A stretch of 64,000 nt of DNA from Eutreptiella sp. 'Long Island Sound 2002' (Eukaryota > Euglenozoa > Euglenophyceae > Eutreptiales > Eutreptiaceae): positions 1,901,379 through 1,965,378 of the forward strand of contig OZ038394.1 of NCBI GenBank assembly GCA_964036045.1, given 5' to 3'. The position numbers and the translations under genes are program-made. The notes beneath the pieces are model-generated. The model did no database searches, was not told the DNA's origin, and saw only the letters and a program-made list of their open reading frames with translations. Below, in pieces: positions 1 to 46,061 of the stretch; position 1 is the stretch's first letter, and each line of letters starts with the position of its first letter.

Positions 1-1
1 T

Positions 2-2560
2 GGTTTTAGGAAGAAAAGAGGCACCACGGACGCAGCGGGCATGATTTCCCTGCTGATTGAGTTATGCCATGTCATGCAAACGACCCTCATGGGTTTCGGG
101 CTAAATTATGTAAAATGCTTTGATCTTATTCCATAGCAGGTGGTGCTCCTGGTTGCCAAGGAGGAGGGCATGGATGAAGGGGTCCAAAGGGCCTTGTCCG
201 GAATGTACGCCCAGCTCATGTGCTGTTTCAAAATTATGGCATGTATGTGCATTTTTTTCCAAGCCACCAATGGCATTCTTCAGGGCTGTCCTCTCAACGT
301 GATTTTAATAAACCTGCTGACCAGCATTTGGAAACGGGTCATGGACGCTGAGGCACAAGCGATCCAGGTGTTAGCGAACCGCATGCCACCAGGGGGTTCT
401 CCCACGGAGGCATTGTCCTTCATTATCACAGCTTTAGGATACACAGATGACACCTACGGATTGGGCACAGTGCGACCGCACACGCAGAGACTGCTGGAGC
501 GCACGGAGGAGTGGCTGACCAACACTGGACAGGCAGTGAACCCGCTGAAATCTGTAAGCTTTCAAGTCGGCCTCGCTGACAAAGACCCATTGCGGATGGG
601 GCGGGAACCCTTTCCAATTTCGACGGAGTTTAAGTCACTGGGGGCAGGGGTGCGCACGACAGGGGATCCCAGTTCGGGCCCACTCATATTGCAACGTATT
701 GCGCGTGCTAGCAAATTGCTGGACAGGGTGCACGGTGCCCAGGGACACTTTGAACGGAGATGCCCTGTCGTCTCTACGATGATTACGGCCACAGGCCTCC
801 ATGCCGTGGAGATCGTGCCATTACAGCCCAAAAGCCTGAGCTCCTTTGAGACCAAAATCATTACCACTATTTGGGGGCCCTCCCGCCCAGCGCGAGCCAA
901 GGAAATCGTTTTTTGCCTGCTCTGTACAGGGCACAGGATCGCCCCCACCCCGATCATCCCGTATCAGCGCGCGGTATGGCTGGCGAAGCTGAGCCGTACG
1001 CGGGTTCCATCGCTTGTTTTGGCCCAGGCCATATGGGAGAAAAACCCCTCTCCGCAATCTGCAGGACCTTTCGGCAGGGCACTACAGACACTGCACAACT
1101 GGGGCTGGACCCCAGCACAGGGGTGGTGGGAATGGACAGCGCCAGGCGTCGCCCAACCTCTAAGCCTCATTGGCGACAAGGCGGAGGTCAAGCACCATGT
1201 CCGGGAACAGCTCAGGGCACAACTGATAGCCCAGCTTATTCAGCGCAGGCCTTGGCAATTCACAGGCATGCACTACACCACTAACAGGCGTTTGGTCCCG
1301 CAGAGCATACTCTCATTCACCTCGGAGCTCGAACGCTCGTTGCTTCGCACCATCCTTGCGGGGGGGGGTCTGGACAGCGCTACGCGCACATCAAAGGGGC
1401 TTGCGGCCCTCCTCTGACTGCCCCTTCTGCGGTAAGGCCGCGGAGACAGAGCAACATATTTTCTGGTCCTGCGAGGCGTGGCAGACCATCAGAGACTCTC
1501 ACACACCCAATATCGAGCATCTGGCCCAGCAGTTTCCTGGGCTAAAGCACACTGCCCACTGGCCCCCCTGTTTACTCACGTGTGGACTAGCGCCAGACAT
1601 TCCACTGCCTGTCAACAGGCAGGAGCGCAACACCAGCCTGGAATTTTTACAAGCCATACATGTCATGTATGTGGCCATTCTTGCAGCGCGCAAGATTCGA
1701 GATGAGCAGGCCCCCATGCTGTTTCCCTCAGCCAGACATGTCGGACAGACAGGGTATCCGTACCAGCAACTGACGGGCCCGGTCCCGCGCACCGAAAATT
1801 TAGGCACGCTGACGCTAGCCAAGCCCACAGCCAAAACCTGGCCGTGGGAGCTACCCTTTCTAGTAGATCTCCTGTCTTGGGCACGTCAGCTGGTTTGGGC
1901 AGACGAGCCAGGCACAGTCGCATTCATAGGGCTCGCGCTCGATTTCGAGAAAACGTCACAGCGCACCCTACCCACAGCTCCACAGGCCAAATACAGAGGG
2001 ACGGCACTGCCGCTGCAAGAGCGCGCCAGGGTTCTCAGGCTGGCGTTATGCACGATGCAGAAATTGGTTACGCGGGGCGCCCTGCACCCCGCTAAAGTAA
2101 TCACCAGGGCGAATTCATTGGTCCCGCTGGGGGGGCCTCAGCAAAGCGGTCTCAGCCGACGCCCATATTTCGTGTCCACATAGGCCATGGTGGGGCATAT
2201 TGCTAAGCTCAGTCAATACTGCGAAGAAACTTGGGCACTGCGCGCACACTCCAGGCAGAACGAGGCACGCTCGTACGTGTACAGACACATGCGCAGTCCA
2301 GTGGAAGTGGAGGAAGCCCGGATTCAGCGGGCCCTCATGGGAGCGTTAAACACCGGGCTTATGCCCTCCTCCTCTGCCACCGCCAAAGGGGGGGGGGGGC
2401 TTTCGCGGCAAATTTCTTCCCCGTCATTGGTCAGGGCAAAGCCCCGCAGGCACCTTACCAGACTACCAGGCAACGCAAGCTCGCAGCTCCGCCGGCGCCA
2501 CAAGCATGTGTGGCAGTGCCGGCACCACATACATGCGCACGGGCTCTCGACCTGTGCAAC
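2..2560 (+). pseudogene. Non-LTR retroelement reverse transcriptase ORF, 5' part (broken)
   Basis: The reading frame is open at the left edge. Reverse-transcriptase landmarks occur in order: GFRKKRGTTDA near 2-34, a motif-A-like KCFDLIP near 113-133 with the catalytic Asp codon at 122-124, a motif-B-like QGCPLN near 281-300, and motif C as YTDDTY at 440-457 (family usual form YADD). A zinc-binding tail of the type that ends many non-LTR RTs follows, with CPFC at about 1419-1430 and EQHIFWSC after it. Such enzymes copy element RNA at a nicked chromosomal target. The frame is damaged: in-frame TAG at 134-136, a frame change at a run of nine G at 1360-1368, TAG at 2181-2183, and another change at twelve G at 2388-2399. 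The ORF stops at 2560 because a DNA element is inserted there; it resumes at 6074. I infer a decayed copy, though the two G-run shifts could be sequencing errors. Confidence 0.85.
2554..2560. repeat. Left target-site duplication GTGCAAC
   Basis: Seven-base direct repeat immediately left of the TIR element; the partner is at 6067-6073. Removing one copy with the element restores the retroelement reading frame. Confidence 0.85.
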
Positions 2561-2584
2561 TTAGGCGTCACAAGTTGCCCGCCC
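2561..2584 (+). repeat. Left terminal inverted repeat
   Basis: A 24-base perfect match to the reverse complement of 6043-6066. It begins TTAGGCGTCACAAG and ends GCCCGCCC. Confidence 0.9.
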
Positions 2585-2751
2585 TCTAGGACCCCATATA
2601 CGCACGATGTGAGAATATTCTACATTTCTAGTTTGAGTATGCTATTTGACATATGTGAGCAATGTTGGTACCAGCGTTGTGTGACATCCATTGAAATAGG
2701 TGGTGATGTGTTAGCCTTAGGTATCCGCTTCATCTAGTGTATCATGTTTGA

Positions 2752-3960
2752 GGTTTTTTTGAAGCTGGCCTAAATTGAGGCCAGCTTTTGGGCTCCATTG
2801 GAAACATCCATGTGTATATACACCTTTTAACGCTTCTGGCCGAAATTTCGGCCAGCTTTTTGGTTTAATGCTGAATGACTATACTCATTTTCATTTTTTT
2901 AAGGGCTGGCCGAAATTTCTCCCAGCTCTCTGGTCTAATCACCATTCATACACTTATACTGGGCTTTTTTTTGTTGGTGTGGCCGAAATTTCGGCCAGCA
3001 TTTCCTCTTTCTGCGCATATCAGCAATTGTTTTCCCACACATTCTTCTTGGTTCCAGGGGTTCCACAAAACCGACCTATACACCACAAGTGAAAGAGCAG
3101 CAAAGATACGATTCATTGAACAGCAAACAAAACTACCCCCAAAGCATATACGTGTATTTCCTATTTTTATTAACCTGGCCGAAATTTCGGCCAGCTTTTC
3201 CAAGAAAATCAAAACACATGGTCTTATTCACCGGACAGGCCCAAGCTGGCCGAAATTTCGGCCAGGTCCTTCAAAACTTGAAATAACGTCACAGAAATGG
3301 ATACCTTTGAGGTTTTTTGGAAGTTGGCCAAAATGGAGGCCAGCTTTTCCATTGGTTCCATTGGAAACATGCATGTGTATATCCACTTTTCAACGCTTCT
3401 GGCCGAAATTTCGGCTAGCTTTTTGGTGTAACGTTGAATGACTATACTCATTTTCATTGTTTTAAGGGCTGGCCGAAATTTCTCCCAGCTCTTTGGTCTA
3501 ATCACCTTTCATACGCTCATATTCGGCTTTTTTGCCAGTGTGTGCCAAAAAAATCAAAACACATGGTAGTATTCACCGGACAGGCCCAAGCTGGCCGAAA
3601 TTTCGGCCAGGTCCTTCAAACTTTGAAATAACGTCACGGAAATGGATACCTTTGAGCTTTTTTGGAAGCTGGCCGAAATTGAGGCCAGCTTTTCCATTGG
3701 TTCCATTGGAAACATGCATGTGTATATACACCTTTTAACGCTTCTGGCCGAAATTTCGGCCAGCTTTTTGGTTTAGTGTTGAATGACTATACTCATTTTC
3801 ATTTTGTTAAGGGCTGGCCGAAATTTCTTCCAGCTCTCTGGTCTAATCACCTTTCATACACTCGTATCCCGCTTTTTTGCCGGTGTGGCCGAAATTTCGG
3901 CCAGTGTGTCCCATTTCTGCGCATATTAGCAATTGTTTTCCCATCCAAAACATCTGGCCG
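2752..3960. repeat. Left foldback arm with GGCCGAAATTTCGGCC palindromes
   Basis: The arm has a modular build. A block beginning near a GAGG-TTTTTTGGAAG motif and carrying the text ACGCTTCTGGCC recurs at about 2752, 3309 and 3650. Each module holds two or three palindromes of the form CTGGCCGAAATTTCGGCCAG at fixed places; perfect 16-base cores begin near 2841, 2981, 3177, 3249, 3593, 3746 and 3887. The same modules occur inverted at 4740-5760. Confidence 0.85.
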
Positions 3961-4377
3961 AAATTTCTGCCAACTTGCAATTCTTGTTGTGCATAAATAT
4001 TACACCGTACACTTCTATAAAGCTGCTTTCTTCTCACAGCGTTAATGCTTTCTGGTATTACTATAACTGTCATGCTCGTATGGGTTGTGCCACGCATTGC
4101 CACTGTTTTGTGTGTACATTCTCTATTTTGCATTTTGCTGGCCGAAATTTCGGCCAAAGTTGCCTTATGTGGACCCCTGATTCCAAATGACACACATTTC
4201 TGGCAGAAATTTCGGCCAGCTTCTCGGCAACCCAATTTTGAACAGTGGTTTCACATCCAGTGCATGGCTGGCCGAAATTTCGGCTATGGTATTCCATCCT
4301 TCGTGTCAAGACGTCGATTTTGGGCCATTTTGTGTTGAATTGCGCTTGTTATTGCCACTTTTGTTATTTCTCTTTCC

Positions 4378-4770
4378 ATGAAATCCCCTACTGTAGCATC
4401 CTTTTTTATGACCGAGCCTGCAATGGATTCACAGGAGGTGCTTATTTCCCCTCCAGCTGAAGCTGCGTCCGAAAATGGGCAATCCCAACCTGCCCATCAA
4501 CCGGACGGGGATAAGGCAAGCACAGAGGGACTTCAAGGGAAGCCTAAGGCACCACCAATGAAAAATTCATCAACCACCATCACGTTATCCGACTGGGTCA
4601 CGTCAACAACCAAAATAAAAGTTCTCTTTGACCAAATTGTAATAGACCACGACCGAAGCATTGGCCACGTCCGTAAATTATCCGAGGATCGTGTGCAGCG
4701 GCGCTATGACGATCTCAAGGCCGCACCACCTGTGGATTACAGGAAATACACGTATATCCTTTGGGGGTAG
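4378..4770 (+). CDS. Short ORF in the unique centre of the TIR element, unknown function
   Basis: A 130-codon frame with an ATG start, in the unique centre of the DNA element. The N-terminal 65 residues are Ser/Pro/Gln-rich and look disordered (EPAMDSQEV, GDKASTEGL). A more ordered stretch follows with DWVTSTTKIK, FDQIVIDHDR and RKLSEDRVQRRYDDL, which could be helical. The last residues (about YRKYTYILWG) are encoded by the right foldback arm, so the frame runs into repeat sequence and was probably truncated there. It may be the remnant of an element protein or a captured host fragment. No transposase catalytic motif is visible and I do not recognise a family. Confidence 0.4.
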   Translation: MKSPTVASFFMTEPAMDSQEVLISPPAEAASENGQSQPAHQPDGDKASTEGLQGKPKAPPMKNSSTTITLSDWVTSTTKIKVLFDQIVIDHDRSIGHVRKLSEDRVQRRYDDLKAAPPVDYRKYTYILWG

Positions 4771-5760
4771 TTTTGTTTGCTGTTCAATGAACCGTATCTT
4801 TGCTGCTCTTTTACTTGTGGTGCATAGGTGGCTTTTGTGGAAACCCTGGAACCAAGAAGAATGTGTTGGATGGGAAAACAATTGCTGATATGCGCGGAAA
4901 CAGGAAATGCTGGCCGAAATTTCGGCCACACCAACGAAAAAAGCCGAATATGAGTGTATGAATGGTGATTAGAGCACAGAGCTGGGAGAAATTTCGGCCA
5001 GCCCTTAAAAAAATGAAAATGAGTATAGTCATTCAACACTAAACCAAAAAGCTGGCCGAAATTTCGGCCAGAAGCGTTAAAAGGTGTATATACACATGCA
5101 TGTTTCCAATGGAACCAATGGAAAAGCTGGCCTCAATTTCGGCCAAGTTGCAAAAAACCTCAAAGGTATCCATTTCTGTGACGTTATTTCAAGGTTTGAA
5201 GGACCTGGCCGAAATTTCGGCCAGCTTGGGCCTGTCTCGTGAATAACACCATGTGTTTTGATGTTTTTGGACCCGACTGGCAAAAAAGCCGAATATGAAC
5301 GTATGGAAGCTGATTAGACCAGAGAGCTGGGAGAAATTTCGGCCAGCCCTTAAAAAAATGAAAATGAGTATAGTCATTCAACGTTAAACCAAAAAGCTGG
5401 CCGAAATTTCGGCCAGAAGCGTTAAAAGGTGTATATACACATGCATGTTTCCAATGGAACCAATGGAAAAGCTGGCCTCAATTTCGGCCAGCTTCCAAAA
5501 AAGCTCAAAGGTATCCATTTCTGTGGCGTTATTTCAAGTTTTGAAGGACCTGGCCGAAATTTCGGCCAGCTTGGGCCTGTCCGGTGAATACTACCATGTG
5601 TTTTGATTTTTTTGGCACAAACTGGCCGAAATTTCGGCCAGGTTCATAAAAAAAGGAAATACACGTATATGCTTTGGGGGTAGTTTTGTTTGTTTTTCAA
5701 TGACCCATATTTTTGCTGTTCTTTTACTTGTGCTGTATACGTGGGTTTTGTGGTAACCCT
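4740..5760. repeat. Right foldback arm (inverted copy of the left arm modules)
   Basis: Reverse-complement counterpart of the left arm. Perfect palindrome cores begin near 4912, 5055, 5208, 5399, 5551 and 5624. The two arms could pair over roughly 1 kb as a single-stranded hairpin. The arms are not identical, so pairing would be interrupted. Confidence 0.85.
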
Positions 5761-6042
5761 GGAACCAAGGGGTAAAAGTAATAATAGATAGACCCCCCCC
5801 CCCTACTAAAGGAATGCAATGGTCTAAATGTAAAATACCACCATATTTTTGTGATTTGGTATCTTTATTTCGAAAATTTGTGTGTAGCTAGAAATAGAAA
5901 TAACGGCATATATTTCACATACATACCTTCATTTTGCCTATTGCCACCGGGGGGGGATAGATACCCCCAAAATAACACCCCTTTTCACATACTTTTCTCC
6001 TCACTACAACATGGACTTCCGTAGGCCATAGCGCCAGGTGGG
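5761..6042. other. Non-coding right flank of the TIR element
   Basis: Holds a run of C near 5794-5803, a run of G near 5950 and A/T-rich sequence between the palindrome arm and the right terminal repeat. I see no reading frame or structured RNA. Confidence 0.5.
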
Positions 6043-6066
6043 GGGCGGGCAACTTGTGACGCCTAA
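6043..6066 (-). repeat. Right terminal inverted repeat
   Basis: A 24-base perfect inverted partner of 2561-2584, ending GACGCCTAA on the plus strand next to the target duplication. Confidence 0.9.
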
Positions 6067-6073
6067 GTGCAAC
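6067..6073. repeat. Right target-site duplication GTGCAAC
   Basis: Partner of the direct repeat at 2554-2560, immediately after the right terminal inverted repeat. Confidence 0.85.
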
Positions 6074-6577
6074 ACACACCAGCGCGCACCGTGCATCACA
6101 TGCAAGCGGCTGCGCAAGTCAGGGGACGCATGCTGTGCCCTCGGACATCACCGGCCAGGATATGTGGACAGGCTACCCCTGTCAGTCACGTGCCGCCAGC
6201 ATGGATTGCCGGCCTGCGCCAGATGCGCCAGAATGCAAAGGGGGGTCCGAAACTGCTGAGGGCACCACAAAGTTCACACACCGGTGCGCAAGCGGCCAGC
6301 CGCACCAGACACGCGACCAGCTAAGCCGCTGCGCACCTCCCGCAGCCCCCCACGCACACACATGGAGCATGCGCGCTCCCCACACATACCAGCCAGACCG
6401 CCCGCCCCAAAGCGACGGAGACCCAAGTCACCATGCCCCCCCTCCCCCCCCCGCCCCGCGGCCCTGCGAGATGATGGGGGAGGGAGAGCCAGAGCATGTA
6501 AGCCGACTTCTGTTTGGTGCAGAGCACGGGAGAGCTTCCACGGAAATAACATAACTATGTCGGCTCAGAGGTTTTGA
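6067..6577 (+). pseudogene. Non-LTR retroelement ORF, 3' part after the inserted DNA element
   Basis: This continues the ORF broken at 2560. If 2561-6066 and one copy of the 7-bp duplication are ignored, the frame runs straight through (ending DLCN on the left, continuing THQRAPC on the right). It encodes a Cys/His-rich module with TCKRLR, GHHRPG, VDRLPL, HGLPAC and MQRGVRNC, almost identical in layout to the copy at 8200-8420. A TGA at 6257-6259 interrupts it, and the same frame then stays open through a Pro/Arg-rich tail to a stop at 6575-6577. The Cys/His spacing suggests a zinc-binding, perhaps nucleic-acid-binding, domain; this is inference. I do not recognise a named family. Confidence 0.75.
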
Positions 6578-7420
6578 CTTTTTGACCGCAGAGAACAGGC
6601 AGTCCAATAAGGCACACACTCGGGTGTACACTTCGGTAAGCCTATCTTAGCAAGCAATCAAACATGGGTCTCCCTCGTTAATAGCACAAGAGCGTCGCAA
6701 GAGCGGCCAGGACATTAAAAGCCATCAACCCTCGTTAATAGCACAGAGCACACACACACACACACACACCTGAACTGGAGGCGCTGAAATCACCCTTGTG
6801 GTGGGGCAATTGGCAATTGGTACACACACGCTGCGGTGGTTGCGCTGGTGTGCTGCAGGGGGTGGGGATCACCGACGCCACCGTGGGGCAACCTACTGCT
6901 CGCCAATTGAAGCGGAATTGAGGAACCAAGCGGAGTGGCGGAGCACTGCTTGCTAGTGGTCTTACGGCCCGGAAGCCGTGAATCAGTGTGCTAGGGGCTT
7001 CTGCAGGGCCCGCTTGACCTAATGGTTCTGCAGCCTAGTACGAATGTAGGAATGTTCAACCTCACGGTTTCAGCATGATTGGAATTGATACCTCAGCGCG
7101 CACACACACGCAACCGCCTGATGCCGCCAGGGGGCAGGCTTTCAAGAGGGGGAGGGCGGGGAACCCCCCCCCCCCCCGGCCAAATGGGCATGCGCACAGC
7201 CACAGAGCGAGGCACGGCATGGACGTGCAGGGACGGAGGTGACTTAAACCCCCATACCCCAGGGGTTCTAGCTCAGGCGAGGCCCCCAGCTGCGACCGAG
7301 CAGGCGCCAGACAGCCCAGCTGTACGCCAGACTATATGCTTTGGAGGCGCTTAAGACGACCACGGGGACCTTGGACCCATACGGGCCTCCCTCTACAATA
7401 TTGTTCTTCCCCGGCGCGCG
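6578..7420. other. Spacer between retroelement copies, no gene seen
   Basis: Contains a short (CA)n run at 6749-6769 and a 16-base direct repeat CCCTCGTTAATAGCAC (about 6674 and 6729). A stretch near 7105-7150 reads NRLMPPGG, faintly like NRMPPGG in the RT copy at about 378-400, so part of this spacer may be very decayed retroelement. Confidence 0.4.
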
Positions 7421-7445
7421 CACACACACATAGACATACATGCAC

Positions 7446-7488
<43 letters not shown>
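7421..7488. repeat. (CA)n microsatellite
   Basis: Almost uninterrupted CA dinucleotides with a few substitutions near 7431-7450. Confidence 0.9.
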
Positions 7489-7489
<1 letters not shown>

Positions 7490-7499
7490 CGGCTTAGCT

Positions 7500-8546
7500 C
7501 CGGATCTCCCAGCCCCGATCTACAGGCAAGTGGAGCAGCATGATGTGCCATTTATTCTGGCAGTGCACACCACGTTTGTTTCTGTGTTGGCGGCCTGAAA
7601 AATACACGATCAGAACACCCTCAAGCTCTTTCCGAAAGCCCGCGTGGACTGAGCCAGGGCATACCCATGTCAGCACCTGATGGGACCGCTACCCCGCCCC
7701 TCTGTGACAGCGTTTCTCTCTCTGCACAATCCCACCAAACACACGTGGCCCTGGGAGGTGGGTTTCATCACGGACTTGCTGTGCTGGCCGCGTGCCCTGC
7801 AGTGGGCCGACGAGCCAGGAACCATCACCTTTATAGAGCTGGCTCTAGACTTCGAGGAATTTGCCGAGCGGACACTGCCGGCCGCACCACAGGCGAAATT
7901 TCGAGGGCACAAGCTACCGCTGCAGGAGAGGGCCCGGGTCCTCAGGCTGGCACTGTGCACTGTGCAAAGGTTGGGTTAATCAGGCACACTACACCCGGTC
8001 AAGAAGGAAGAGGCACGCCCGCAGCGTGCCCTGGCAGGTAGCCTAAACACGGGCTTGATGCCGTCCTCATCTCTATGCGCCAAGGGGGGGGTGTCCACCA
8101 CCTTTACGAGTGACCTATTCCCGGTCATTGGATCCGGCGGCGTACCACAAGCGCCATACTCTGTCGGCGTGCGCCGCAGGTCAGCAGCCAGCGCACTGAC
8201 ATCGGTCACATACGCGCCTCATGCCCACTCATATTGCCCAGCGCACTGTTTGCCGGCGTGTTCCACATGCAAGAGGCTGAGAATCCCGGCGGCACTATGC
8301 TACAGCAAGGGACACCACAACCCGGGGCACGTGGACCGGCACCCGCTTTTGAAAACATGCGCCCTCCATGGACTCCCGCCCTGCCCTCGTTGCACACTCA
8401 TGCAGAGAGGCGTACGGCATTGTTGTGCGGGCATCACAAAGTGTGCCCACCCCGAGAGTGTGTTTGTGTTGAAGAGACCACCATGCACAACCCATCATGC
8501 TGAGGCATTCTTGTCACTTGTTTTTGCAGAAAGTGCTCAAGCATGA
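7500..8546 (+). pseudogene. Second non-LTR retroelement copy, 5'-truncated and broken
   Basis: Homologous to the distal part of the retroelement at 1419-2560 plus 6074-6300. Around 7540-7570 a CHLFWQC string recalls the zinc motif HIFWSC. From 7680 the frame gives KHTWPWEVGF, WADEPGT, LALDFEE, PQAKFRG and LPLQERARVLRLALCT, matching the first copy nearly residue for residue. A TAA at 7977-7979 breaks it. A segment present in copy 1 between ALHPAK and VEEARIQRAL is missing here. From 8055 the frame gives NTGLMPSS-like sequence, LFPVIGSGG and then the Cys/His module (STCKRLR, GHHNPGHVDR, HGLPPCPRC, MQRGVRHCC). No RT core is present. This copy carries no TIR element and so shows what the empty site looks like. 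Confidence 0.8.
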
Positions 8547-8613
8547 CCCGAAACATGACCTCATTCTCCTTCCCTCATTCCCCTTCCCCGGAATTTTGGG
8601 GCTATCTTTATAA

Positions 8614-8704
8614 TGTTTTGTGGCAAGAAATTGTAAGGGGGTATGCATCACAGCTGCACTTGAGGCGCTGATATCTGCAGTGCAGCGTCGTGCTGAGGCT
8701 GAGG
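8614..8704 (+). CDS. Possible upstream exon of the CAP-Gly gene
   Basis: The frame is open from 8614 and reads ITAALEALISAVQRRAEAEG, ending at GAG-G before GTGAGG at 8705. An 84-nt intron 8705-8788 (GTGAGG to CTTTGCAG) would join it in phase to the CAP-Gly exon, completing a Gly codon (G+GC). This rests only on splice signals and phase. The true 5' limit is unknown. Confidence 0.3.
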
Positions 8705-8788
8705 GTGAGGCAAGTTGCCGTGCTGCAACAACCCAGATGGTCCCAGTTTCACCCTTTCTACCCCATTCTGCCATGTGAATCTTTGCAG

Positions 8789-9348
8789 GCTCTGTGAATC
8801 GGTCTTTTTTTCGCCATCAAATGCCTGCACTCGGTGAGCGTGTCTATGTGCAGCATTTACAATGTGCCGGAGCGGTGAGGTTTGCAGGGGAGATCCCCGG
8901 TGTCCAAGGGGAATGGTACGGAGTAGAGCTGGACGAGGCAAAAGGGACCAGCAATGGCAAGCTCGTCGGCAAGCAGCTGTTCAGTTGCGAGGAAAAGCAC
9001 GGCGTGTTCTTACGCGGCACCAATTTGACCTCCGAAGAAGAGATGAAGAAAAAGGCAGCACAAGCCGCTTTACCCGCACAGTCCACGAATGTGCAGGGGC
9101 CCAAGAGTACTAGCATGGCTCCCCAAGTGCACACTGTGCAGAAAGGCCTTCACCGCGTTCAAAGAAACTCACTTGGCTTTCCTGGGCCCGTGCAGGTGTG
9201 CATCCAGGACGCGTCTCGTGCCGTTGTGCATGTGTGCACTGGAGTAGTGCGCAATGCCCCTTGTGCCTTAGATGTCTGCCCTACTGTCATTCTCAGGACC
9301 ATGGGTTTTGCTGGGGCCACTTTCGTGCCGATGGGGTGTAGGTATTGA
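8789..9348 (+). CDS. CAP-Gly domain protein, partial exon
   Basis: CAP-Gly domains bind the C-terminal EEY/F tails of tubulin and EB proteins; they occur in dynactin p150, CLIPs and tubulin-folding cofactors. The domain begins about 8833: GERVYVQ, then GAVRFAGEIPGVQGEWYGVELDEAKGTSNG, GKQLFSCEEKHGVFL and RGTNL. The Trp, the Gly residues and the FxCxxxxGVF signature are in place. The usual GKNDG peptide-binding loop reads GTSNG, which may change ligand preference. An acidic-basic stretch EEEMKKKAAQAAL follows. The first ATG in frame is at 8821; the exon probably starts at 8789 after CTTTGCAG. After about 9190 the sequence looks non-coding, and a CAG-GTGTGC donor at 9194 is possible, so the stop at 9346-9348 may never be used. 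Which CAP-Gly protein this is cannot be told from one domain. Confidence 0.7.
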
Positions 9349-10950
9349 GGTATGCTGGTTCGGCGGTGCCCACATGGGCCTGTGGCACGGGTCATCGTAT
9401 CGGCTCCAATCCTCAAACAACACATGCACTGGCGGGGGTATCACTGTGTCTTGGGCAGTGTGGAACAGGGTTTGGGAGGTCGCCGACATACAGTATTTTG
9501 CGAAACTGCAACTTCATAGGTTTGTTCCGGATGGGGACAATGCATATCTGGTGACTTTGCCGAATGTGTACGGAGTGCCCACGCCCTGGAATCCTGCCAT
9601 CTGAAGCCTTAGACTGTGCTCAAGCAAACCTTGAGCAAAAGGTTCTCATTACTAAAAGGACAGCCCTGTGCGCTGTATTGCCCTTTCGGCTGAAAGTAAA
9701 AAGATTGCGATTTCCCAGCCCTAAGTGAGGGGGGGGGGGGTTCAGCACAGTGCGTGCGGAATGCGACTATTGGCTTTTTTTTGGCTACCTTTTGGCAATT
9801 TTGGCTACCTCAAAGTGTGTAGTTTTAGCACAATTGGCACTCGTGAAAGTGCCCTGTTGTCTGGTGCATGTTGTGTCAGGGTGAGGGAAGGTACGTAACA
9901 GTTGTGAATCACTGGGCTGGATGCCTGGGCTCATGTGCGGGCCTTTGAGGGCGCTCTTGCCACGGTGCACACGCGGTGCAAATTTTGGGTAAATTTGGGG
10001 ACCCATTGGCAGCCATTGGCACCCCAGGAACACAACTGGTGTGTTTGCAACTGCGCTTTTCTAGGGGCGAAGGCTTGATCCGAAGCAGTTTGATGCATTT
10101 TGGGGCTACTTGTGCCTCGGGAGGCGGGACTGGAGGGCTACGGGGGGTGTGCGGTGCGGTAGCGAAAGCGGTTGCTGGCGGTACCGAAAGGCGGTTGGGG
10201 GGGGGGGTTCAGGTGCTGCCAAAAGAGGCGGAGGACGGAGAGGTGCGGTTGGGGGCGGTACTTCTGCCTTTCTTCCTAAGCTTAGGCGTGAGTGGGGTGC
10301 GTGTTCCCACGCTCATCTGCGCAGCCGACCCTGGTCTTGCAAAAGGTCGCTGGAGCATGTATCATTCCATGTACCCTCACATGCATCGAAAAAATTAGCG
10401 CCCTGCACATCCAATTCGGGGTACAGACTGCTCGGGTGGGCTATTCGCCCAAAAACTTGGTGAGCGGGATTGGCACACTACCAAGAAATGGTCCCTGGGC
10501 CATGTCCGGCTCTCGAGCCTCCGGAGATGGGCCCTCTGTGTGGGAAGCGAGGTCAACAGGCATTGCTGGTGGGGGCGGCGGTGACATGCCCACCGTATGT
10601 CCTGATTCACAGCTGGACGTTGCAAGGTCCATTGTGTGTTGTAGTGCATCCCAACACGAGCGTGTTGGGCCGCCGGTAGCGGTGATCGGGAACGCCGTAT
10701 GCTGAGACTCTGGTGGTGTGCGCCTCATCAACTTGAACTGGTTCGAACATAACAATCTCTGATTCTCCGAAATCCCGGTTGTCAGTTCCCACACCGAATT
10801 CTTGATGCCTGTATGCCGCTTCGCGTTGTCGTCGCTCAATTTTGGATGTAGTCACCAGTTCCGGGAGAATCTTGGGAACGTAGAACTGGTAAAATCATAT
10901 TAGGCCAGTGGCCAGAGAACCGCTCCTGGCTAGGCAAGACCCGCCAGGCA
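9349..10950. other. Unassigned stretch downstream of the CAP-Gly exon
   Basis: No recognisable gene. There are poly-G tracts near 9730-9740 and 10198-10208, and a G-rich part (10120-10270) that can be read as Gly/Arg-rich peptide (KRGGGRRGAVGGG) ending near a possible donor at 10288. It could contain further exons of the CAP-Gly gene, but nothing confirms this. Confidence 0.35.
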
Positions 10951-11523
10951 ATGCACAAAGATGTCACGCCCCCCTTACAGCACCAAATGTGGGTCCCAGT
11001 ATTGCCAGACTGTGGGGGCGTGGAATCCAACCCGGGGCCAGAACCACAGGAGGCGAAACATGGTGTCCCCCAAGCGCAGGCTTCCCCACTACTGCATGAA
11101 TTGGTCATGGGACTTTCAGTCACAGGTCTGCAAGCAATTAATACAAAATGCAAAGGCATCTAGGAACATTTTCAGAAAATTAGCAAACAAGCGGAAATCG
11201 CTGGCCCCGGCGGAAAGAAAAGGGGCCAATCTGAGGAATATGAGGATGCACTTGCATAGATGATAGAGGTCTTGGTAGAGTTTAACACACTGATAAAAAA
11301 TTTGCGCCACCCCCTCCTTGATAAAGTCAAGGGACAGGTTGATGAAATTAATCAACAACTCAAGCAGGTTGAGGACATGTTGCAGCAACCCTCGAAAGAG
11401 GAGGCAAACAAACTTGTTGATCAAATACATGAACTTTTTGAACAATTGGATCTTCGCTTAGACCAACTGGTTCACCTCGTCACCCATGGTGAGTTTGCGA
11501 GGGGTCAACGCGGTCGTTTTTGA
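10951..11523 (+). pseudogene. ORF with 2A-like motif and coiled coil, broken by two TAG codons
   Basis: One frame runs from ATG 10951 to a stop at 11521, interrupted by TAG at 11161-11163 and 11257-11259. Residues 20-30 read DCGGVESNPGP, close to the 2A consensus D(V/I)ExNPGP, which makes ribosomes skip a peptide bond; here Gly replaces the consensus Asp. 2A-like motifs are known near the N-termini of several non-LTR retroelements. The distal part (11260-11520: VDEINQQLKQVEDMLQ, EEANKLVDQIHELFEQLDLRLDQLVHLV) has heptad-like hydrophobic spacing typical of a coiled coil. The combination suggests the N-terminal protein of a retroelement; this is inference. The frame ends where satellite DNA begins, so the 3' part may have been lost to the array. 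Confidence 0.5.
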
Positions 11524-44408: not shown

Positions 44409-46061
44409 GAAAGCCAGGCCATTCATGAGGCAGCCACGTTTTTTGATGCAGGAGATGCCCTCTTTTTTCATCAGGGGGAGAAGTCCAAAAAAAGGGGACG
44501 CAACGGCCAGTCGGTGAGGACATACCCTCTTGTTGATGCCGCAGCAGCGGCGTCGTCGAATAAGACGTTGCGAAAGATAGAGAAAGGCAAATCGGTGCAA
44601 TGGAACGATTTTGTTGCATTCCGGTCAATCCACCGGGTCAACGCAGAGCGTTGCACTTGCCCAACATACGGGACATATGCCATGTGTGAAGGCGTCCTTT
44701 TGTGGCACATTGTGAAGGTTCCAGGCTTCAAGGTTCCCACTCAGTACTCCTGGGAATTGATTGCTCAACGGCCCTTCAAGTTGGGACGTGTGGAACGCTT
44801 GGTCACTGCACGGGCAGAACCACCAAAACAGTCTTCCTCAAAGAAAGCCCACAAGAAGGGCCCGAAACAGCGAGGTCCGCGATCTAGTACGGATGATGCA
44901 GCATCAGATGCGTCCGAGCATGCTGTGGCATTGCCCTCCAAAGGCGACTCCGCCCTGCATAGGAAGACGTGGCACCAATTGAACCTTTTCCGCCCCCCTT
45001 GGACTTGTGGGCAGTGCGAGCGAAAAGTGTACCTGTGGTGCATGCACTGCGAAGGCTGTGGTTTTTGCTTGACCACAGTGGAGTGCCCCATGCGAGGCCG
45101 CATCCCTCCTGATGAGGATGCGTGGTTGTACCGCAAGTGGCAAACAGAGGTGGACGTGGATTCCCTCTTGCAAGCTACCTTGCCCCCTGGTCCTATTGAG
45201 GATGAGGGGGACTCGTACGAGGCGCTCGTACTAGCTGGTAGGGTGAGCGACCTTTCAAATACCGCCACTCCAGAGCAAGATGCTGTGGTGCCTGTCCTTG
45301 CTCCTCCCTCTAACGTAGCCAAGCCGTTGATGGCCGGCATTTCCGAGGAGGAGGATACTGCTATCCCTGTGGCTCCAGCACGGATGGCGACCCGCCGGAC
45401 GCCCATCGGTGAAACCAAGCCTCTTGTTGTGGGAGATTGGTTGGCCGACAAGGACATTGTGGCGTGGCGGAACGACAGGTTGTACCACAATGAGGTCCAG
45501 GAGCCACGGGCATGGACTTTGGCGGTGACATACATTGCGTTCTGCCTGAATAGGATGAGGAAGTACGAAGACAGTAAGGGCAACAACCATAAAACTGTTC
45601 GTTTGGCTTGGAGGCGGCGCCACATATTTATTGTTAATAGTGACGCTCGCGAAGGGCTCCATTGGTTTCTTTGTGCCATCGACCGCAGAGTCCCAGTATG
45701 GGCCTTCAAAGTCCACATTTGGGAGCCACTTTGTGGTACTTCTTTGGTCCGGCCAATGTTGAAGCGCCTCCAGTCAAAGGGTGTTGTCGCACATGCTCGG
45801 GCTTTGGGTTTTCAAGAGGATGGTTGGTCATGTGGCTATCAATCGCTGCATCTTTGTGATGAGGTGGCCAACCACAGGGGAAGCCTGGACGATGTTGTTG
45901 TTACACGTTTGCCGAAAGGATTCATCAATGAAGCACTGCGCATCATCAATGCAGATCGCTCCGTCCGAGTCCCCGGCACGAATCCCGGAGAATGGGTGGG
46001 AAAAGGAGTTGACTTGCTGGAGGCCCCGAGAATCTCCTTCTCCTCCAGCCTCCAACCCTGA
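44409..46061 (+). CDS. SWIM-like plus ULP1-like (C48) cysteine protease ORF, transposon-type
   Basis: The frame is open from 44409, just after the satellite edge, so the 5' end is probably missing; no ATG is obvious near the start. In order: a CTCPTYGTYAMC...H string (about 44650-44710) resembling a SWIM zinc finger; Lys/Ser-rich linker; a Cys-rich segment CGQC-(8)-CMHCEGCGFC (about 45010-45070); and a ULP1-like protease end with EGLHWFLCAID (His codon at 45660), IWEPL (Glu codon at 45723 where the family usually has Asp) and FQEDGWSCGYQSL (Gln at 45813, nucleophile Cys at 45831). ULP1 proteases cleave SUMO-like proteins; the SWIM plus ULP combination is familiar from Mutator-like transposons. 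The stop at 46059-46061 is followed by coding-like sequence in another frame. No DDE catalytic core is present, so only a C-terminal remnant survives. Confidence 0.62.
   Translation, partial: ESQAIHEAATFFDAGDALFFHQGEKSKKRGRNGQSVRTYPLVDAAAAASSNKTLRKIEKGKSVQWNDFVAFRSIHRVNAERCTCPTYGTYAMCEGVLLWHIVKVPGFKVPTQYSWELIAQRPFKLGRVERLVTARAEPPKQSSSKKAHKKGPKQRGPRSSTDDAASDASEHAVALPSKGDSALHRKTWHQLNLFRPPWTCGQCERKVYLWCMHCEGCGFCLTTVECPMRGRIPPDEDAWLYRKWQTEVDVDSLLQATLPPGPIEDEGDSYEALVLAGRVSDLSNTATPEQDAVVPVLAPPSNVAKPLMAGISEEEDTAIPVAPARMATRRTPIGETKPLVVGDWLADKDIVAWRNDRLYHNEVQEPRAWTLAVTYIAFCLNRMRKYEDSKGNNHKTVRLAWRRRHIFIVNSDAREGLHWFLCAIDRRVPVWAFKVHIWEPLCGTSLVRPMLKRLQSKGVVAHARALGFQEDGWSCGYQSLHLCDEVANHRGSLDDVVVTRLPKGFINEALRIINADRSVRVPGTNPGEWVGKGVDLLEAPRISFSSSLQP

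What the first reader, a model, noticed from the sequence alone, without database searches (positions are those of the whole stretch)
2554..6073. A TIR element caught inside a retroelement ORF, with a frame-perfect empty site
The 24-bp perfect terminal inverted repeats and the GTGCAAC duplication are read directly. Deleting 2561-6066 plus one GTGCAAC joins the retroelement frame without a shift, and the related copy at 7.5-8.5 kb has no insertion at the equivalent place. This fixes the ends of an otherwise unrecognised element and orders the events: the DNA element came after the retroelement.
Basis: seen in the sequence. Interest (0 to 1): 0.75.

Follow-up and report, generated by a model that had tools for sequence, protein, structure and literature searches.

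The report
Transposon inserted in a retroelement gene
A short, gene-poor DNA transposon with matching inverted ends jumped into an older retroelement, and that stretch was later copied to other places in the genome; it belongs to a large transposon family whose bigger members carry a gene that matches no known protein family in the parts read.

Summary
The insertion is real, but its ends are off by one base and the target duplication is 5 bp, not 7. I read 35 complete relatives from the whole genome (2.28 Gb, G000; best matches, not a random sample). In 34 of 35 the TTAGGCG-type end is preceded by C and the other end followed by G. Of the 31 at sites other than the window's, 29 have an exact 5-bp target duplication outside these bases and 0 have a 7-bp one. 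The window's target read G-TGCAA-C, which mimics 7 bp. The element is therefore 2560-6067 (3508 bp, 25-bp inverted ends, TSD TGCAA).

It is a deletion derivative of a 3.93-kb family that shares its ends with about 6.53-kb elements. The 19-base end occurs 684 + 685 times (reversed control 0). The 6.5-kb form carries a gene in several open stretches, without a family match in the parts read.

Five filled (up to 1 mismatch) and 56 empty (up to 2) retroelement sites were found. The five filled copies share downstream flank: one insertion, then duplication of the locus. A sixth locus, 97% alike, is empty. The superfamily is unassigned.

The parts
2555..2559 (.). Target site duplication, left copy (TGCAA)
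   Evidence: 5-bp rule from 29 of 31 relatives at other sites; sequence
6068..6072 (.). Target site duplication, right copy (TGCAA)
2560..6067 (+). Whole DNA element, 3508 bp, deletion derivative of the 3.93-kb family
   Evidence: TIR, TSD and alignment with 23 copies of 3.88-3.95 kb; window copy 98.5% to their majority sequence
2560..2584 (+). Left terminal inverted repeat, 25 bp, begins C-TTAGGCGTCACAAGTTG
6043..6067 (-). Right terminal inverted repeat, 25 bp
2747..3973 (+). Left block of about 345-bp repeats, with copies of the near-palindrome CTGGCCGAAATTTCGGCCAG
   Evidence: inverted repeats I1-I10; palindrome positions
4378..4770 (+). 130-codon ORF: remnant of exon 1 of the family's gene, cut after codon 121 by the internal deletion
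   Evidence: 29 homologous protein clusters, alignment; a relative of this exon lies in larger elements
4741..5769 (-). Right block of the same repeats in inverted orientation; its left edge is the deletion junction (about 417 bp lost against the 3.93-kb form)
1..2559 (+). Host retroelement, left part: reverse transcriptase and zf-RVT region, with frame breaks
   Evidence: PF00078 weak (E 0.015, below its cut-off), PF13966 E 2.5e-6; ORFs
6068..6744 (+). Host retroelement, right part: end of ORF (stop 6257-6259) and 3' end (TTAATAGCACA)
   Evidence: joined frame; 3' boundary from the divergence of copy C7:75.9

Best explanation
This is a non-autonomous cut-and-paste DNA transposon. A transposase supplied in trans, most likely by the 6.5-kb relatives with the same ends, recognised its 25-bp inverted ends, cut it out elsewhere, and inserted it into TGCAA within an older non-LTR retroelement, staggering the cut by 5 bp. 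The insert kept the ends, the palindrome-rich inverted subterminal blocks and part of exon 1 of the family's gene, and had lost about 417 bp of the core. Later the locus, retroelement and element together, was duplicated so that five copies exist. Shown: ends, TSD length, family, shared flanks of the five filled copies, empty relatives. Inferred: that the 6.5-kb elements make the transposase, that the palindromes bind a protein of the element, that the internal deletion preceded the insertion, and that the sixth locus split off before the insertion.
For: Ends and exact 5-bp TSD in 29 of 31 complete copies at other sites, plus 1 with one mismatch. 19-base end: 684 forward and 685 reverse exact places against 0 for the reversed control. 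Of the first 100 places listed, 78 form 39 +/- pairs within 20 kb (0.5 expected at random, at most 4 in 1000 trials); 10 pairs measure 3920-3948 bp and 11 measure 6511-6539 bp. Five filled junctions against 56 empty sites. The five filled copies share flank beyond the retroelement 3' end, and a 97% paralogous locus is empty. Element and flanks have diverged about equally among the five, gaps left out: 98.9-99.5% and, for 2.5 kb of left flank, 99.0-99.3%. Gene of the larger form: places of exon 1, 2 and 3 lie in open frames of most often 289, 184 and 439 codons; without a stop inside the match in 130, 146 and 146 of 150 scored places each.
Against: No transposase catalytic domain has been seen. 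The 700 bp read of one 6.5-kb element and the exon-1 proteins match no family convincingly; about 1.75 kb to the right and 4.1 kb to the left of that sample were not read. One complete copy (L026) has G instead of C at one end and no TSD, and one (L032) has a mismatch in it. The copies read were chosen as best matches to the window, and the stop-free counts come from best-scoring places, so both lean towards intact copies. Constraint on the short copies' ORF is weak: 43 synonymous and 83 other changes in codons 1-121, ratio about 0.58.
Confidence: 0.9

Rival explanations
1. The element ends at TTAGGCG and makes 7-bp duplications, as a P/Galileo-like or Dada-like element would (the Galileo and Dada TSD lengths are recalled).
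Against: 0 of 31 copies at other sites show a 7-bp duplication with these ends; 29 of 31 show exactly 5 bp outside C..G.
Confidence: 0.01
2. The five filled copies arose by retrotransposition of the retroelement carrying the DNA element as a passenger.
For: In copy C7:75.9 the homology on the right stops exactly at the retroelement 3' end.
Against: The same downstream flank (window 6693-11400) reappears 21.8 kb further on in C7:75.9, and directly at or just beyond the 3' end in the other four. So that break is most simply a later insertion there, not an independent landing. Left flanks beyond 4 kb were not read.
Confidence: 0.06
3. The family is a hAT5-type element (hAT with 5-bp TSD).
For: hAT lineages with 5-bp TSDs are described (PMC12730594, passages). 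hAT dimerisation domains are plentiful in this genome (150 scored of 1757 candidates). Short TIR and subterminal repeats fit hAT (recalled).
Against: 0 of the 11 listed hAT hits on contig C1 below 100.1 Mb lie in any of the 39 TIR pairs there, whereas 6 of 8 exon-2 and 6 of 8 exon-3 places do (compared by eye). The hit lists are capped at 150, so this is weak. Termini CTTAGG do not fit the hAT pattern as recalled.
Confidence: 0.15
4. Transib/RAG-like or Ginger2/TDD element, the other described groups with 5-bp TSDs that I found.
For: Transib 5-bp TSD (PMC8355894, passages); TDD-4 and TDD-5 5-bp TSD (PMC2836005, passages).
Against: CMCT elements, with Transib among them, end CA..TG in most cases (PMC12730594, passages) and Ginger2 ends follow TGTNR (PMC2836005, passages); this family begins with C before TTAGG and ends CCTAA-G, C..G in 34 of 35 copies read.
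Confidence: 0.12

Closest known systems
Non-autonomous deletion derivatives of TIR DNA transposons (Ds-like; the name is recalled)
   Same: Short TIRs, fixed-length TSD, internal deletion of the gene, family of near-identical size, larger gene-bearing relatives with the same ends
   Different: Superfamily not identified; large inverted subterminal repeat blocks make up most of the element
Foldback/Galileo elements (P superfamily; PMC3573991, PMC3688188, seen in the search listing only)
   Same: Long internally repetitive inverted repeats; multiple sites inside them that could bind a protein
   Different: Inverted blocks are subterminal, not terminal; TSD 5 bp; no P-type transposase seen
hAT5, Transib and Ginger2/TDD
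   Same: 5-bp TSD (PMC12730594, PMC8355894, PMC2836005, passages)
   Different: Termini CTTAGG..CCTAAG; no domain of these groups found in the parts read

Membership tests
Cut-and-paste TIR DNA transposon | Terminal inverted repeats shared by many copies | tested here: met
   25-bp TIR; 24-bp core perfect at both ends in 26 of 35 complete copies, one mismatch at one end in 9; 684+685 exact end 19-mers
Cut-and-paste TIR DNA transposon | Fixed-length target duplication | tested here: met
   exact 5 bp in 29 of 31 copies at sites other than the window's
Cut-and-paste TIR DNA transposon | DDE or other transposase in autonomous members | tested here: inconclusive
   a gene in large open frames in the larger form, no family match in the parts read
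hAT5 | 5-bp TSD | tested here: met
hAT5 | hAT transposase between the TIRs | tested here: inconclusive
   0 of 11 listed hAT hits on C1 below 100.1 Mb inside 39 TIR pairs; capped list
Transib / CMCT | CA..TG (CAC..GTG) termini | tested here: not met
   C-TTAGG start and CCTAA-G end, C..G in 34 of 35; rule from PMC12730594 passages, 'in most cases'
CACTA (EnSpm) | Transposase_21 domain | tested here: inconclusive
   PF02992 rang nowhere, the 14 controls included
KDZ (Zisupton group) | 8-bp TSD as in Zisupton | tested here: not met
   TSD is 5 bp; 8 bp from PMC12730594 passages
KDZ (Zisupton group) | KDZ domain | tested here: inconclusive
   PF18758 rang nowhere, the 14 controls included
Ginger2/TDD | TGTNR termini | tested here: not met
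   termini differ (rule from PMC2836005 passages)
Ginger2/TDD | Integrase-like transposase | not tested
   no search for an integrase family was made in the genome
Mutator (MULE) | MULE domain between the TIRs | tested here: inconclusive
   0 of 3 listed MULE hits on C1 below 100.1 Mb inside 39 TIR pairs; capped list
P/Galileo | 7-8-bp TSD (recalled) | tested here: not met
   0 of 31 with 7 bp; 29 of 31 with 5 bp

The most novel reading that the evidence does not exclude
The family is a DNA transposon superfamily not yet described: 5-bp TSD, CTTAGG..CCTAAG ends, and a transposase-sized spliced gene with no recognisable domain, whose product (or that of a truncated exon 1 kept in the short copies) binds the palindromes GGCCGAAATTTCGGCC that stand about 70 bp apart through most of the element.
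Probability: 0.2. Interest if true: 0.65.

Novelty: new member of a known kind. Interest (0 to 1): 0.4.

Why it matters
It fixes the true ends and TSD of a family with an exact end at 684 + 685 places in this genome, that is perhaps some 700 elements. It gives an ordered nest (retroelement, then DNA element, then locus duplication, with an empty sister locus), and it points to 6.5-kb relatives whose protein is the obvious next thing to read. If that protein is a transposase of no known group, the classification of eukaryotic DNA transposons gains a lineage; if it is a divergent hAT, Transib or Ginger, it gains an unusual branch.

Tried and rejected
The 7-bp TSD and the P/Galileo reading (recalled) were dropped. 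Passenger retrotransposition was favoured for copy C7:75.9 after and dropped. A longer protein beginning with exon 1 was sought among proteins of roughly 330-1050 residues: 135 candidates, none at E <= 0.01. A structure model of the exon-1 protein is useless (mean pLDDT 42.7), so no fold search was made. Exon-2 protein against solved structures: best E 0.29. Exon-3 protein in viral contigs: no relative. An 18-base piece of the end in viral contigs: 0. KDZ and CACTA domain searches rang nowhere, controls included, and say nothing. Rfam on the window at gathering thresholds: nothing. The organism was not identified. Literature searches for 5-bp TSD elements and for the motif letters and one for the genome showed no description of this family in that library's listings.
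Full report
What is there. The window lies in a 2.28-Gb genome of 2205 contigs, held unnamed as G000 (window = G000:C17:1901379-1965378). At 2561-2584 and 6043-6066 stand perfect 24-bp inverted repeats, and GTGCAAC stands on both sides. The element is AT-richer (windows inside it 0.40-0.48 GC) than the retroelement around it. The surroundings are a non-LTR retroelement: a weak RVT_1 match (E 0.015, below its cut-off), zf-RVT at 2.5e-6, and close relatives in the protein database.

Correcting the ends. I fetched 36 relatives, which with the window make up the 37 places scored (2039 first-look candidates); 35 had both ends in the stretch (L043 did not). If the next base at each side is counted in, 34 of 35 begin with C and end with G, and an exact 5-bp duplication follows in 33 of 35, that is in 29 of the 31 at other sites. 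L032 has one mismatch; L026 has G for C and no duplication. By chance one would expect about 0.03 of 31. The window's target read G-TGCAA-C, so that its own G and C extend the match to seven letters. The element is 2560-6067, the TSD is TGCAA. The 31 distinct duplicated targets (the window's site counted twice because copy C19 differs by one flanking base) are AT-rich inside the 5 bp and lean weakly to C before and G after.

Empty sites. The joined flanks read ...FAANFFPVIGQGKAPQAPYQ...RALDLCNTHQRAPCITCKRLRKSGDACC..., and protein P0036 reads ...RALDLCSTHQRAPCITCKRLRKSGDACC.... Genome-wide, the filled left junction (up to 1 mismatch) occurs 5 times and the empty site (up to 2 mismatches) 56 times (11 exact, 20 with one, 25 with two); the reversed controls give 0.

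One insertion, then duplication. The five filled copies share their left flank at 98.4-99.3%, over about 4 kb between the other four and over 2.56 kb with the window. On the right, the query window 6068-11400 matches C7:70.6 and C17:32.3 in full at 99-100%, C19:32.4 in two pieces, and C7:75.9 as 1-678 and, 21.8 kb further on, 626-5333. That last copy had first looked like an independent landing by retrotransposition, because its homology stops exactly at the retroelement 3' end, and further retroelement-like sequence ending in the same 3' tail follows; one search makes a later insertion there the simpler reading. A sixth locus, C17:2444416-2448017 (-), is 97% alike in the flank. Its retroelement piece (95%) carries a single TGCAA, read directly as CTCTCGACCTGTGCAACACACACC. 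So the likely order is retroelement, split of the sixth locus, insertion, further duplication. This assumes that the retroelement at the sixth locus is the same original insertion; 2.2 kb lie between it and the shared flank there, and its left flank was not read. Element and flanks have diverged by about the same amount among the five, gaps left out: element 98.9-99.5%, 2.5 kb of left flank 99.0-99.3%.

The family. Twenty-three of the 35 complete copies measure 3.88-3.95 kb and are 96.9-98.6% identical to their majority sequence; the window copy is 98.5% and has lost about 417 bp of the core. The five filled copies all align across this deletion; copy C19:32.4 has in addition a partial internal duplication and is 4694 bp. 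So the deletion most likely preceded the insertion (inference). Divergence is lowest at the two ends (0.93% in the first 200 bp, about 0.8% in the last 131 bp, 1.4-3.5% in the 200-bp bins between), as expected if the ends are under selection for mobility (the last value is rescaled from the printed 0.54 for its shorter bin). Most of the element consists of two inverted blocks of about 345-bp units around a core of about 1 kb, with 31 near-copies (up to 5 mismatches) of CTGGCCGAAATTTCGGCCAG in the 3931-bp sequence, 23 of the 30 spacings being 62-78 bp. The window's element has 28 and the rest of the window none.

Larger relatives. The 19-base end CTTAGGCGTCACAAGTTGC occurs 684 + 685 times against 0 for the reversed control. 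Of the first 100 places (contig C1 to 100.1 Mb), 78 form 39 pairs of the right order within 20 kb (0.5 expected at random): 10 of 3920-3948 bp, 11 of 6511-6539 bp, 18 others from 2170 to 13525 bp; 22 places stay unpaired. The short copies' ORF (130 codons in the window, 162 in the full form; full length in 16 of the 22 assessable of 23 copies) has 29 database clusters in two groups, the second 53-68% identical to the window's. Constraint on the ORF within the short copies is weak (43 synonymous, 83 other changes, ratio about 0.58). The second group (query P0011) sits in larger elements: of its 5 listed places on C1 below 100.1 Mb, 4 lie in a TIR pair of 4.5-6.5 kb and the fifth near an unpaired end. 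A 700-base sample from one 6530-bp element shows two more coding stretches parted by an intron with a GTATGT start that itself holds one perfect palindrome (the splice sites are my reading). In the genome, exon 1, 2 and 3 queries give 150 scored places each of 3335, 2150 and 3040 candidates; the commonest open frames are 289, 184 and 439 codons; 130, 146 and 146 of 150 have no stop inside the match (scored places are the best ones, so these figures lean high). Listed exon-2 places on C1 below 100.1 Mb fall in a TIR pair in 6 of 8, and exon-3 places below 100.2 Mb in 6 of 8; three of the other four lie within about 4.1 kb of an unpaired end, one (63169785) has none near (compared by eye). In a few elements exons 1 and 2 share one open frame of 474 codons. 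So the 6.5-kb form has room for a protein of roughly 600-700 residues (inference), the natural candidate for the transposase.

Which group? Exon-1 proteins and the two read exons match nothing convincing in Pfam or NCBIfam, and exon 2 nothing in solved structures. hAT and MULE domains are common in the genome, but none of the 11 hAT and 3 MULE places listed on C1 below 100.1 Mb lies in a TIR pair (compared by eye; lists capped at 150; the hAT control rang in 0 of 14 genomes, MULE in 3). KDZ and Transposase_21 rang nowhere, controls included. Described groups with 5-bp TSDs that I met are hAT5 (PMC12730594, passages), Transib (PMC8355894, passages) and TDD-4/5 of Ginger2 (PMC2836005, passages). 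The latter two end mostly CA..TG and TGTNR according to the passages, unlike CTTAGG..CCTAAG. IS481EU has TSDs of about 4, 15 or 25 bp and TGT or TNT ends (PMC10045372, passages). I therefore leave the superfamily open.

How it most likely works. A transposase from the 6.5-kb relatives acts in trans on the 25-bp ends. The regular palindromes, present in the short copies and also in the intron of a larger one, look like dimer-binding sites for a protein of the element, perhaps exon 1's product; this is a guess, and the structure model gave no help.

Noticed in passing
window 11461-44354: A 33-kb array of an 85-bp satellite, with long open stretches in all three minus-strand frames.
   Followed up: no
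window 7440-7500, 6744-6770; database proteins P0036, P0037: Retroelement ends and truncated relatives lie next to (CA)n runs (or THTHTH in the proteins), as if this retroelement family prefers (CA)n targets.
   Followed up: no
L046 (G000:C7:75889850-75893849); L012 near the retroelement 3' end: Retroelement-like sequence repeated head to tail at the shared 3' end: within 21.8 kb of extra sequence in C7:75.9, and a 141-bp piece in C19:32.4, suggesting insertion into, or recombination at, 3' ends of its own kind.
   Followed up: partly
window 44409-46058: A 550-codon open frame with a CxC..CxH pattern like a SWIM zinc finger (recalled motif), no Pfam match even at E 5; stands at the edge of the satellite.
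   Followed up: partly
G000:C16:6449067-6815995 and other contigs: MULE domains in open frames near 1007 codons at many places, and a cluster on C16; perhaps an intact autonomous Mutator family.
   Followed up: no
G000:C1:24399150-24412674, 84609315-84619188, 97889326-97902200: TIR pairs 9.9-13.5 kb apart: nested insertions or still larger members of the family.
   Followed up: no
window 8779-9345: A CAP-Gly domain open frame (E 1.4e-18) inside the duplicated flank, so a host gene piece is copied along with the locus.
   Followed up: no
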